A stretch of 42,111 bases of DNA from a virus, in IMG/VR virus record IMGVR_UViG_3300022745_000066, positions 1-42,111 of that record. One strand, written 5' to 3'. This document shows positions 25,017 to 42,111 of the stretch, piece by piece; the stretch's first letter is position 1, and each line of letters starts with the position of its first letter. The notes under the pieces were generated by a model, which saw nothing but the letters and a program-made list of their open reading frames with translations, made no database searches and was not told the origin of the DNA. Both the position numbers and the translations under genes were made by a program.

Positions 25017-25891
25017 GTGTCTTCCTCCATGCGAATTGACAAAAATGTCGGGAATCGGGGCTTGTCCTTCACACCGCTAACCATCGACTTGTACTTGATG
25101 AGCTTGCCCACCAGCAAGTCTTGATTGGCCCAGAAGTTTCGGCGCTCGTCGTGCGTCATCTTGCCGGGGCCTACCGTAATGGCCTGCCCACTTGCTGTGA
25201 CACACTCCAGAGCCCCCACCATGTCCTTGGGCACCATATTTTCCTGGTGCGAGGACCGCTCGGTATGACCCAGTTCGTTGATCTTGGCTTCGTTACGGTT
25301 CTCCATCGCCTGCACGACGCGCACCACAGTGGCCTCGGCATCCGCGAACTGCTTGACGCGAATCAAGCTGCCACATGACGTGCCAGATCGGCCCGACTTG
25401 TAGGGAGCCAGCGGGTTGCGCAGGATGGTGCCTTCCATACCGGATGCCACCCATGAGGCATCCAATGCGTCGATCTCCTCCTGGTTCCACACCACTTGCG
25501 AAGGTACAGCCACAACTCGTGGATCATTAAGTGCCGCTACCCGCTCCCGCAGAGTGGCGTACCGTTTTTCGTACGGCCAATCAGACTTGTCGGTGATGTC
25601 GAACACATGCCACACCACGTCATCGGCTGAGCCGTTCACAGTGTTGAGCACTGAAGTCGTATCCCGGCACAGCGAGGTTGAGTTGATGGAGCCCCAGGCC
25701 ATCTCTCCATCGAAGTGTTGGTACTTGGGGTCTGAGAAGACTTCCATGACCGCCTTGTTCTTGAAGGGCTTTAGCGACCGACCGGTGAAGGACTCGATGT
25801 AGCAAGCCCGCACACCGTCGATCTTGGGTTGGGCGATCATCGGGAACGAGAGCTTGCACTTCTCGATGTCTTGGGCAAGGGTGGGGTTCAT
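25013..25891 (-). CDS. ATP-dependent DNA ligase
   Basis: This encodes 292 residues. The nucleotidyltransferase motifs appear in order: KIDGVR (motif I, lysine 23 is adenylated), HFDGEM (III, about 59-64), VFDITD (IIIa), EGTILRNP (IV) and LIRVKQF (V). The short C terminus is an OB-fold domain, making it a compact phage-type enzyme like T7 ligase. It seals nicks left by DNA polymerase I on the lagging strand. ATG start in a TAATG overlap with thyX. Confidence 0.9.
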   Translation of the reverse strand: MNPTLAQDIEKCKLSFPMIAQPKIDGVRACYIESFTGRSLKPFKNKAVMEVFSDPKYQHFDGEMAWGSINSTSLCRDTTSVLNTVNGSADDVVWHVFDITDKSDWPYEKRYATLRERVAALNDPRVVAVPSQVVWNQEEIDALDASWVASGMEGTILRNPLAPYKSGRSGTSCGSLIRVKQFADAEATVVRVVQAMENRNEAKINELGHTERSSHQENMVPKDMVGALECVTASGQAITVGPGKMTHDERRNFWANQDLLVGKLIKYKSMVSGVKDKPRFPTFLSIRMEEDT

Positions 25892-27450
25892 TAGGCAATC
25901 CAGTGCCGTTCTACGGCTGCAATGGTGATTGGGGCAACCTGCTTGGCAAGGTCAAGCATGGCTTGGGCGTATACCTGAATCTCGTGCTGGGCATGAGCGT
26001 GCAGACGCAGCTTGCAGAACTTCATCAGGTTGTGCAGGTCTACTGTGCAGAAGAAATGCGTGTAGGTGTTCATAGGCAGGACTCCACGTGCAAGTTCGCG
26101 GGGAACACCAGCGTCGATCATTTCCTTGTACGCGGTGAAGGCGTCTTCACAGGTCTTGCGCATCAGGTCTTGGAAGTACAGCGCCTGTGGGTGTTGCTCC
26201 TTGGTGCGCATCTGCTTGTTCGTCGGACTCTGCGTGGTGATTTGATCCACCCAAGGGGTGTAGAAGACGGCAGGCAGCTCGGAGTAGCGGGCGGATATTT
26301 CATTGAAACAGTTATGTACCAAGAAATTATTAGCTACAAAGTTATGCTCCTTATGGGCTACCGTAACGTCATACACAGGTTCAATACCATCCTTGGTAAT
26401 ACTCGTGACTGGAACACTTACCCAAGACCGGGTAGCCCTGCCTCCGTTAATCTTAGCGTCATTGGAGTTGTCTTTAGGGGATCCCCACGCCAAATTTTGG
26501 AGTCGATTATCCATTGGGTTATCATCCAAGTGTCTAAGCACCTCCATATCCCCCTTTGGGGGTAAGAACATGGACGCTACTATTGCAGACACATGCATAA
26601 CTTTATTTTTGATATTCACTACCGCACGGCGGTTGCTGCATGTGATGGTTTTATCCATCCAGATCGACCCCTTACTGCGACGTCCTTGGCCCCACAATGT
26701 CTGTACTCTACCTAGAGTGGATACCCTGTAACCGTCATGGAACTCCGCCCATTGCTCATTAGCCAACTCGTCCTCGGTGAGTACTGGTACCTCTGGCCTG
26801 CGTGGGTTACCCTTATACCCTAGTAAAGTTACATTACGCCCAGCAAGGTTTTCGGCTTTTACCCATACCCCGTCCGAATGGAATAAATGGTCTCCACTAG
26901 CCCGTATGACCCTCTTCCCTGCAACTATACGGTATAGCTGCTTAGTGCCCGACATCCAAACATCTGTTATGGATGTTTCTTCGATCTCTCCGCCACTACC
27001 CCGGCAGCGTAATTTCATACCGGAGATACGCGATCGGTTGTGTTCCTCCAAACTGAGACGGCTCGGATCTGCTCTACGATGTTTTGCTGCCGGAGGGTTC
27101 CATGACTTGGCCAAGTGGCCGATGGTTAACTTATACGGTTTACCGTCACAGGGGCGCACGAATTCCAACTTTGTGTCTCCTGCCAGACACCATGTCCGGT
27201 GCCGCATCCACTGACGCGCTACAAAAAGAGGAGCACGCACGTCGAAGGTGAAATTAACCGCCTCTAGCGGGCTCGTGTGCGAGTGCTTCACGAGGTAATC
27301 AATGAGCTTGGCATCCTTGCCTTCGTCCTCACCAGAGCGCCACTCTGCGTCGTAGCTGACGCGAGCGTTGCGCACGATGGACAAGTCGCTGCCCATGTGC
27401 TCTACCAATCGTACGCTTCCATGGTCCAGCACGTTGATGATGTTGTTCAA
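25891..27450 (-). CDS. thyX: Flavin-dependent thymidylate synthase ThyX interrupted by an intein
   Basis: The frame encodes 519 residues. It starts at the TTG at 27450, which overlaps the previous TGA (TTGA). Extein parts are residues 1-87 and 381-519, giving a 226-residue ThyX, a normal length. The ThyX motif RHRX7S is split: RHRTW is encoded before the intein and CFNEISARY after it. ThyX makes dTMP from dUMP using FAD and methylene-tetrahydrofolate. The motif residue directly after the splice point is Cys, which also serves as the splicing nucleophile. Other ThyX features are SYDAEWRSG, HTSPLEAVNFTF and the C-terminal LRLHAHAQHEI. Confidence 0.92.
   Translation of the reverse strand: MNNIINVLDHGSVRLVEHMGSDLSIVRNARVSYDAEWRSGEDEGKDAKLIDYLVKHSHTSPLEAVNFTFDVRAPLFVARQWMRHRTWCLAGDTKLEFVRPCDGKPYKLTIGHLAKSWNPPAAKHRRADPSRLSLEEHNRSRISGMKLRCRGSGGEIEETSITDVWMSGTKQLYRIVAGKRVIRASGDHLFHSDGVWVKAENLAGRNVTLLGYKGNPRRPEVPVLTEDELANEQWAEFHDGYRVSTLGRVQTLWGQGRRSKGSIWMDKTITCSNRRAVVNIKNKVMHVSAIVASMFLPPKGDMEVLRHLDDNPMDNRLQNLAWGSPKDNSNDAKINGGRATRSWVSVPVTSITKDGIEPVYDVTVAHKEHNFVANNFLVHNCFNEISARYSELPAVFYTPWVDQITTQSPTNKQMRTKEQHPQALYFQDLMRKTCEDAFTAYKEMIDAGVPRELARGVLPMNTYTHFFCTVDLHNLMKFCKLRLHAHAQHEIQVYAQAMLDLAKQVAPITIAAVERHWIA
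26311..27189 (-). mobile_element. Intein with NUMOD4-HNH homing endonuclease, inserted in thyX
   Basis: The element is 293 residues. Block A is CLAGDTKLEF with Cys1, block B is ASGDHLFHSDG, and block F/G is PVYDVTVAHKEHNFVANN followed by terminal VHN and Cys+1 of the extein. Between them lie a NUMOD4-like segment (WAEFHDGYRVSTLGRVQTL) and an HNH segment (MHVSAIVASMFLPP, LRHLDDNPMDNRLQNLAWG). All splicing residues appear intact, so self-splicing and homing into intein-free thyX genes are likely. The DNA is visibly AT-richer than the exteins, a sign of separate origin. Confidence 0.92.
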
Positions 27451-39409: not shown

Positions 39410-39596
39410 TGCGTCTTTTTACTGATTGGGGTATCTTGGGCTTATAGCCCCAGGCCAGTGCACCCTCGTACCACTGACCGATGATGAGCACGCCTCCCTC
39501 GTTGATGAGCAGCAAGCTCACGCCTTTGGGTGGTGGGTTGATGAGTGGATCGTAGAGCGTGGTGACTTGCTCGGTGGGGTGTAGTTTATCGCTCAA
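39348..39596 (-). CDS. Small DUF551-like protein
   Basis: This encodes 82 residues from the TTG at 39596, overlapping the previous TGA (TTGA). PPPKGVSLLLINEGGVLIIG followed by QWYEGALAWGYKP resembles the small DUF551 module common in phages (Pro-rich start, two strands, 'G.y..g..W'). Its function is unknown. The last 20 residues overlap the helicase gene in another frame and look less conserved in style (RRNARQPATTDQ). Confidence 0.5.
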   Translation of the reverse strand: MSDKLHPTEQVTTLYDPLINPPPKGVSLLLINEGGVLIIGQWYEGALAWGYKPKIPQSVKRRNARQPATTDQTPIRPEAQAT

Positions 39597-41209: not shown

Positions 41210-41588
41210 GGTGCTTTCCAAAGAGCAAGCTGGGGAGTTGGCCAGCCTCCTGAGAGCCATCCCTTGTATGCCATGTCTTGGGCACATACTGCCCAGTGTG
41301 GAACACCCGGCGCGGCTGGGCCACAGCGAAGTCGGGGTCACCATTGATCTTGGCCAAGTGGTTGCGCCCACTTGCGGTGATGAGCACACTCTGGCCAATG
41401 AACTCTGCGAAGCGGTGCTTGACAAGATAGACCGCAGCTTGTCGGCCTTGCGATTGGCGCTCGCCAAGTGAGTCGAGGTAGCTCATGAACTGCGGGCCTT
41501 TGGCCAGCTCCGTGAGCACAGTGATTTGAAGTTCCGTGACTTCTCCCCGCGCTAAAGCACGGGGATTCTTTTTAGAATCTGTGCTCAT
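41199..41588 (-). CDS. Phage protein whose 5' end has been replaced by a transposon end
   Basis: The frame from the ATG at 41588 encodes 129 residues. The ATG overlaps the TnpB stop (ATGA) and uses an AGGAG inside tnpB. The first codons (STDSKKNPRALARGEV) are encoded by the element's right-end hairpin; genuine phage sequence seems to start near TELQITVLTELAKGP. The body (FMSYLDSLGERQSQGRQAAV, then LITASGRNHLAKI) resembles a winged-helix regulator, which is tentative. The original start has probably been lost through the insertion. Confidence 0.5.
   Translation of the reverse strand: MSTDSKKNPRALARGEVTELQITVLTELAKGPQFMSYLDSLGERQSQGRQAAVYLVKHRFAEFIGQSVLITASGRNHLAKINGDPDFAVAQPRRVFHTGQYVPKTWHTRDGSQEAGQLPSLLFGKHHAA
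41533..41567 (-). repeat. IS605-type right-end hairpin downstream of tnpB
   Basis: On the minus strand, about 20 bases after the TnpB stop, CCCCGTGCTTTAGCGCGGGG forms a hairpin and is followed by AGAAGTCAC. This is the typical right end of an IS200/IS605-family element and would form the 3' part of the omega RNA scaffold, with the guide taken from the bases beyond. The exact border is probably near GTCAC, about 41533, but cannot be fixed without an empty-site sequence. Confidence 0.65.
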
Positions 41589-42111
41589 GCTGAGGCTCCT
41601 ACAACTAGCGTCGCAAGTCCGCGACGGACAATGTTCTGTGCAGCGTTCGTATCGCGGTCGTTTTCCGCTCCACAACTACAAGTCCATTGCCTTATTCCAA
41701 GCCCTGCGACACCTTTCGGCCCCTCCACACTTGCGCATGAAGAACAGGTTTGGGTTGAATAGGCTTCGTTGACCTCCGCATAGACCACACCTGCACGATT
41801 GCTTTTATATTCGAGCATGGTCTTGAAACTTGCCCAGCCCGCATCGAGTGATGATTTACTCATGCGGGTCTTGGCAATAGCGGATGGCTTTACGTTGCCG
41901 ACGAATATCGCCCCGTGTTGGCGAACCAACCCGGTCGATGCTTTATGCAAAAAGTCGTGGCGCTGGTTCTTGACCTTGGCGTGCAGCTTCTTTGCTTGTT
42001 TCTTTTTCTTGGCGCGTTGCGCAGCACCGATGCGTTCTTGCATCTTGCGATACCAACGAGGGTGCTCTATCTTGCTACCGTTGCTGATGTTGGCCAAGTC
42101 TTTTAGGCCCA
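41585..42111 (-). mobile_element. tnpB: TnpB (IS605-type RNA-guided nuclease), 5' part outside window
   Basis: The frame is open to the window edge, so only the last about 175 residues are seen, beginning GLKDLANISNGSKI, which is the RuvC-I neighbourhood with its Asp lying outside. The zinc ribbon CSSC ... CSC is present, and RuvC-III is AENDRDTNAAQN. In the RuvC-II region the usual Glu is not found: the strand reads IFVGNVKPSAIAKT, and Glu residues appear later in YAEVNEAYSTQTC. TnpB cuts DNA next to a short motif under guidance of RNA made from the element's right end. No TnpA transposase is visible here. Confidence 0.85.

What the first reader, a model, noticed from the sequence alone, without database searches (positions are those of the whole stretch)
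41533..42111. TnpB with a displaced RuvC-II glutamate in a phage
The usual Glu strand reads IFVGNV, while Glu residues appear ahead of the zinc ribbon in AEVNEAYSTQTC; RuvC-III Asp is intact. TnpB groups with rearranged catalytic sites have been described, so it may be active, or it could be a nuclease-dead relative used for regulation. The guide would come from the phage sequence beyond the right-end hairpin, favouring homing into phages lacking the element.
Basis: partly seen in the sequence, partly recalled or inferred. Interest (0 to 1): 0.6.

Follow-up and report, generated by a model that had tools for sequence, protein, structure and literature searches.

The report
Phage TnpB element that restores start codons
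The window ends in half of a small mobile element whose RNA-guided DNA cutter has its catalytic glutamate moved to an already known alternative place, and the element sits exactly on a phage gene's start codon and carries a replacement start codon, apparently letting it jump into packed phage operons without silencing the next gene.

Summary
In detail: window 41585-42111 (-) encodes the 3' half of a TnpB with Gly at the canonical RuvC-II Glu column and Glu just ahead of the zinc ribbon. The missing 5' half is on another contig, L018 (79 bp identical overlap; a related phage, L002, keeps both flanks joined as an empty site). The whole TnpB is one intact 345-aa frame with D170, E286 and D324. 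Displaced Glu is not new: it is the published 'Ealt' RuvC of the D-hydrophobic-G clade (Yoon 2023), and every relative here lacking the canonical Glu has it except one decayed copy. So it is very probably an active nuclease, not a dead regulator. Two omegaRNA helices covary strongly. The new part is the right end. The element lies directly behind an NTGA stop/start overlap, so the downstream gene loses its start codon. Its right end supplies Shine-Dalgarno plus ATG, open through the terminal hairpin and in the downstream gene's frame. A phase-blind pattern scan found 16 distinct phage elements or remnants of this kind; all 16 are in phase and stop-free, with spacers of 34, 37, 40, 43 and 49 nt. 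None was seen in 399 Burkholderiales genomes. Homing is plausible but untested.

The parts
41585..42111 (-). 3' half of tnpB (residues 172-345 of 345). The 5' half incl. RuvC-I Asp170 lies on L018:3488-3998 (IMGVR_UViG_3300022745_000128)
41897..41899 (-). canonical RuvC-II Glu column, here Gly242 (IFVGNV)
41765..41767 (-). alternative RuvC-II Glu286 (Ealt, ExxxxxxC before the zinc ribbon)
   Evidence: PMC10711439
41651..41653 (-). RuvC-III Asp324 (NDRDTN)
41609..41626 (-). omegaRNA scaffold helix inside the tnpB C-terminal coding region (6 bp, loop GGACTT)
   Evidence: 99.5% paired, 108 two-sided changes, score 1.19 vs 0.27 shuffled
41596..41600 (-). Shine-Dalgarno AGGAG, 7 nt ahead of the ATG
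   Evidence: sequence
41585..41588 (-). ATGA: replacement start codon ATG overlapping the tnpB stop TGA
41545..41564 (-). right-end hairpin CCCCGTGC-TTTA-GCGCGGGG (omegaRNA 3' stem-loop / transposon end)
   Evidence: 91.5% paired, 40 two-sided changes
41537..42111 (-). right part of the mobile element; right end at 41537 (...GTCA). Whole element about 1,165 bp with L018:3409-3998
   Evidence: empty-site comparison with L002
41517..41536 (-). predicted 20-nt guide CGGAACTTCAAATCACTGTG, first 20 nt of flanking phage DNA
41199..41588 (-). chimeric reading frame: element-encoded MSTDSKKNPRALARGEV fused in frame to the phage gene (native start MTEIQITVLTELAKG in L002); 129 aa, gene part 101/112 identical to L002

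Best explanation
A tnpB-only IS200/IS605-type (IS1341-like) element in a tailed-phage operon. Its TnpB is an active Ealt RuvC nuclease (D170/E286/D324) guided by an omegaRNA made from the tnpB 3' end, the right-end hairpin and about 20 nt of flanking phage DNA; it would cut element-free copies of the site and so favour retention and spread. The element inserts behind NTGA motifs. In phage operons these are often overlapping stop/start codons, so the upstream stop is kept while the downstream gene loses its NTG start. The right end repairs this: AGGAG and ATG at the end of tnpB open a frame through the hairpin, and since the target always ends NTG|A and the right end ends GTC A|, the original frame is always regained, with a short N-terminal extension. 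Shown by sequence: residues, boundaries, empty site, omegaRNA covariation, frame restoration in 16 elements. Inferred: nuclease activity, translation from the new ATG, selection for it, homing.
For: Intact 345-aa TnpB. Reciprocity: all aligned relatives without canonical Glu have Glu at ExxxxxxC except one decayed copy (L057); none of those with canonical Glu do. AF2 model of relative L024 (mean pLDDT 83) matches TnpB/Cas12f structures first, mimivirus Fanzor2 at rank 7. Covarying helices. Empty site in L002, a phage ~90-95% identical where aligned. Replacement start: phase-blind pattern gave 20 viral contigs, 17 of them right ends; with the window 16 distinct, all in phase and stop-free, spacers 34/37/40/43/49, all 1 mod 3. 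Native starts checked independently: L002; Pantoea phage PdC23 and E. coli phage Bas81 for L017; Microcystis phage Mwe-JY25 methylase with a 4-bp gene overlap for L174; GcrA domain for L173. ATGA or GTGA left flanks in L017, L169, L171, L173, L178, L181, L184. Remnants without intact tnpB (L172, L184, L017) keep the SD-ATG right end. The trait needs at least 5 changes on the TnpB tree.
Against: No experiment; metagenomic contigs; the window-L018 join rests on a 79-bp overlap and synteny, not reads. 12 of 16 fused frames run 41 aa or more past the junction; in L077, L176, L180, L182 only 3-29 aa. The upstream junction of L174 is unclear. The window downstream gene has an in-frame GTG 7 codons in that could serve as a start. 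No Y1 transposase in the window, L018, L002 or L003 records, so mobilisation would be in trans. The L002 copy of tnpB has a frameshift. Some phage tnpB genes in the same part of the tree lack a recognisable right-end hairpin.
Confidence: 0.78

Rival explanations
1. Nuclease-dead TnpB kept as an RNA-guided regulator (TldR-like).
For: The canonical RuvC-II Glu is Gly; phage-encoded TldR proteins exist (PMC13418256, abstract).
Against: RuvC-I and RuvC-III Asp intact and Glu at the published alternative position, conserved throughout the clade; the guide equals the adjacent flank, not a host promoter; it sits inside a recognisable element with ends and an empty site.
Confidence: 0.05
2. Ordinary Ealt element; the in-phase ATG of the right end is a by-product of tnpB C-terminus and omegaRNA constraints, not a device for downstream translation.
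For: An AGGAG-like sequence is already conserved as part of the scaffold in standard members; many relatives end tnpB inside the hairpin.
Against: In the other relatives with a recognised right end no SD-ATG lies in that frame, and in most a stop sits 4 codons before the end; spacer lengths vary only by multiples of 3 in 16 elements; the trait is scattered over the tree; remnants that lost tnpB keep it.
Confidence: 0.15
3. Decayed, inactive remnant passing through the phage.
For: The related copy in L002 is frameshifted; L017, L172 and L184 are remnants.
Against: The window/L018 copy is an intact 345-aa frame with catalytic, zinc and RNA features conserved.
Confidence: 0.07

Closest known systems
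Ealt TnpBs with D-hydrophobic-G RuvC-I (Yoon et al. 2023, PMC10711439)
   Same: Glu six residues before the zinc-ribbon CxxC, RuvC-I DLG, no canonical Glu
   Different: phage-borne, with IS605-like ends and a translated right end that carries SD-ATG
IS200/IS605 tnpB elements such as ISDra2 and ISFba1
   Same: fold, zinc ribbon, subterminal hairpins, insertion 3' of a short TGA-containing motif, omegaRNA ending at the transposon right end
   Different: relocated Glu; no TnpA in the record; right end open in the downstream frame
Fanzor / pro-Fanzor
   Same: alternative Glu position
   Different: RuvC-I is DLG not DPG; IS605-like not IS607 ends
TldR RNA-guided repressors
   Same: TnpB relatives carried by phages
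   Different: catalytic acids are intact here
Standard Ealt elements in cultured phages (Acinetobacter phage HFM1, Salmonella phage LPSTLL)
   Same: same TnpB clade and right-end type
   Different: tnpB stops inside the hairpin loop; no SD-ATG in the downstream frame

Membership tests
RNA-guided TnpB nuclease (IS200/IS605 tnpB) | RuvC plus zinc-ribbon protein of the family above a curated cut-off | tested here: met
   (guided_TnpB 154.6 bits, cut-off 100)
RNA-guided TnpB nuclease (IS200/IS605 tnpB) | three catalytic acids present | tested here: met
   D170, E286 (alternative site), D324
RNA-guided TnpB nuclease (IS200/IS605 tnpB) | structured omegaRNA overlapping the tnpB 3' end and right end | tested here: met
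   covariation; transcription not tested
RNA-guided TnpB nuclease (IS200/IS605 tnpB) | RNA-guided DNA cleavage next to a TAM | not testable with these tools
   TAM side read as TTGA (ATGA in the L002 empty site); no assay
IS200/IS605 element | Y1 transposase TnpA | tested here: not met
   PF01797 absent from the window, L018, L002 and L003 records: tnpB-only, IS1341-like
IS200/IS605 element | precise insertion 3' of a short motif without target duplication | tested here: met
   L002 empty site versus the two junctions, (1-nt ambiguity)
Ealt D-hydrophobic-G TnpB clade | Glu at ExxxxxxC, hydrophobic residue after RuvC-I Asp, no canonical Glu | tested here: met
   tree
Fanzor / pro-Fanzor | DPG motif in RuvC-I | tested here: not met
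   VGIDLG
TldR | loss of RuvC catalytic residues | tested here: not met

The most novel reading that the evidence does not exclude
Phage TnpB elements have repeatedly evolved a translated right end: the same stretch is omegaRNA scaffold, transposon end and start module, so that insertion into NTGA stop/start junctions is neutral for the downstream gene; tnpB-less remnants stay as new gene starts.
Probability: 0.7. Interest if true: 0.72.

Novelty: new variant of a known kind. Interest (0 to 1): 0.6.

Why it matters
It answers how an insertion sequence with a strict short target can live in tightly packed, overlapping phage operons: its target motif coincides with start codons, and its end puts one back in the right frame. 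If confirmed, one RNA/DNA stretch serves transposition, guide scaffold and translation start, and it gives phage genes new N-terminal extensions. It also makes clear that the displaced glutamate is not a sign of a dead nuclease.

Tried and rejected
Rfam at gathering thresholds: no match in the window. Search for another phage with the same empty site: only L002, and only L002 carries the downstream gene. First right-end pattern brought right ends L079-L082 without an in-phase ATG, which showed the feature is a subgroup trait; L081 has an ATG near the hairpin but out of phase. Three of the 20 contigs (L177, L179, L185, one shared sequence) are not TnpB ends. My regular expression for right ends misfired on many distant relatives, so only cases inspected by eye are used. 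TldR and Fanzor membership were considered and rejected. Structure prediction gave no coordinates, so the distance of the alternative Glu to the two Asp could not be measured. The IS607 element in L002 was considered as a source of a mobiliser, but it encodes a serine recombinase and its own canonical-Glu TnpB, which would not be expected to act on these ends.

Full report
What is there. The window is a 42,111-base virus record. Its right end holds, on the minus strand, the 3' half of a tnpB gene (41585-42111). Pfam and NCBIfam place it in the TnpB family.

The missing half. A viral scan found L018 (27,372-base contig), whose last 79 bases are identical to window 42111..42033 and which carries the 5' half of the gene. 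Joined, the frame is 345 aa without a stop and has RuvC-I VGIDLG with D170. A related phage, L002 (72,401 bases, about 90-95% identical where aligned), has the L018 left flank directly followed by the window's flank at L002:630, with no insert. So window and L018 are two pieces of one phage, the element is L018:3409-4077 plus window 42032..41537 (about 1,165 bp), and L002 shows the empty site. The left flank reads CCTTGA (CCATGA in L002), the right end ...GAAGTCA, and the guide would start CGGAACTTC.

The catalytic glutamate. The position is E286, ExxxxxxC before the zinc ribbon. Yoon et al. 2023 (PMC10711439) define this as Ealt, find Ealt TnpBs separated on the tree from canonical-Glu ones, and split them into a D-hydrophobic-G and a DPG (Fanzor, pro-Fanzor) clade. 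This TnpB is DLG. Among the relatives fetched here, every one that lacks the canonical Glu has Ealt except one decayed copy (L057), and none with the canonical Glu has it. The tree puts the window inside the Ealt group, apart from the canonical outgroup with full support. A model of relative L024 (pLDDT 83) matches ISFba1 and ISDra2 TnpB first and mimivirus Fanzor2 among the top ten. Hence a nuclease-dead reading is unlikely; activity itself is inferred.

The omegaRNA. Two helices were tested on alignments of the 3' ends. A 6-bp helix inside the tnpB C-terminal coding region is paired in 99.5% of cells with 108 two-sided changes (covariation score 1.19 against 0.27 in shuffles, under 0.28 in slid controls). 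The right-end hairpin has 8 pairs, 91.5% paired, 40 two-sided changes (score 0.50 against 0.19). The window keeps both.

The right end is translated (inferred from the frame). The tnpB stop is in ATGA (41588-41585). The ATG is 7 nt behind AGGAG, and its frame runs through the hairpin and across the right end into the phage gene in its native frame: MSTDSKKNPRALARGEV followed by TELQITVLTELAKG..., where L002 has MTEIQITVLTELAKG... at the empty site. The gene part is 101/112 identical to L002, 19 synonymous against 11 non-synonymous codon differences. The reason the frame works is general: the target ends NTGA, where NTG is the start codon and A the first base of codon 2, and TGA is also the stop of the upstream gene in overlapping pairs; the right end ends GTCA with A again as first base of codon 2.

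It is not a single case. In most relatives the same frame has a stop 4 codons before the right end, and none of those outside the subgroup has SD-ATG there. A second viral scan added cases, and a pattern that fixes AGGAGCC, ATG and GGGGAGNNGTCA but leaves 28-52 nt free between them, so blind to phase, returned 20 contigs. Three of these share one unrelated sequence. The other 17, with the window, are 16 distinct elements or remnants: all 16 are in phase and free of stops, with spacers 34, 37, 40, 43 and 49, all 1 mod 3. None was found in 399 Burkholderiales genomes. The fused genes include DNA methylases (L174, L172), a GcrA regulator (L173) and conserved phage proteins. Independent records confirm that the natural gene starts at the junction: Pantoea phage PdC23 and E. 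coli phage Bas81 for L017, Microcystis phage Mwe-JY25 with a 4-bp gene overlap for L174. By inspection the left flanks of L017, L171, L173, L178, L181 and L184 are ATGA and of L169 GTGA. L184 has both ends but no tnpB, L172 only a right end, L017 a tnpB tail; all keep SD-ATG in frame, as expected if the downstream gene now depends on it. On the TnpB tree the trait needs at least five changes across well-supported branches, so it was gained or lost several times.

What is not shown. No activity, transcription or translation was measured. Four of 16 fused frames are short (3-29 aa after the junction). Mobilisation must be in trans, since no Y1 transposase is in the phage records. Homing into element-free phages follows from how TnpB works in general (from knowledge; the abstract of PMC11870625 reports an IS gene drive in plasmids) but is untested here; L002 differs from the guide at positions 6, 14 and 17.

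Verdict. The displaced glutamate is real, known and expected to be functional. The translated, start-restoring right end is, as far as eight literature searches in an open-access library could tell, undescribed; that library is incomplete.

Noticed in passing
25891-27450 (-): thyX (thymidylate synthase complementing protein) is interrupted by an intein with an HNH endonuclease domain.
   Followed up: no
window and L018: The window record and IMGVR_UViG_3300022745_000128 (27,372 bases) are adjacent pieces of one phage genome, broken inside tnpB; the relative L002 is 72,401 bases.
   Followed up: yes
L002:5031-6842: The related phage also carries an IS607-type tnpA (serine recombinase) plus a canonical-Glu tnpB about 0.5 kb from its frameshifted Ealt tnpB copy, an insert absent from the window (window 39446-39449).
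   Followed up: partly
L002:3300-3490: A small gene like a ribbon-helix-helix DNA-binding protein lies between the element left end and tnpB in the L002 copy, overlapping the tnpB start; the window/L018 copy lacks it.
   Followed up: no
L018:1333-2503: About 1.1 kb of degenerate tandem repeats, open in several frames, upstream of the element.
   Followed up: no
L049, L053, L058 right ends: Polynucleobacter-type copies have extra hairpins inserted in the right-end loop.
   Followed up: no
L119, L164, L101: Phage Ealt tnpB genes without a recognisable right-end hairpin; in L119 and L164 the tnpB end runs into the start of the next gene, perhaps domesticated copies without omegaRNA.
   Followed up: partly
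L189 (Salmonella phage LPSTLL, MN737551): An Ealt TnpB with a standard right end is annotated there as 'putative head morphogenesis protein'.
   Followed up: partly
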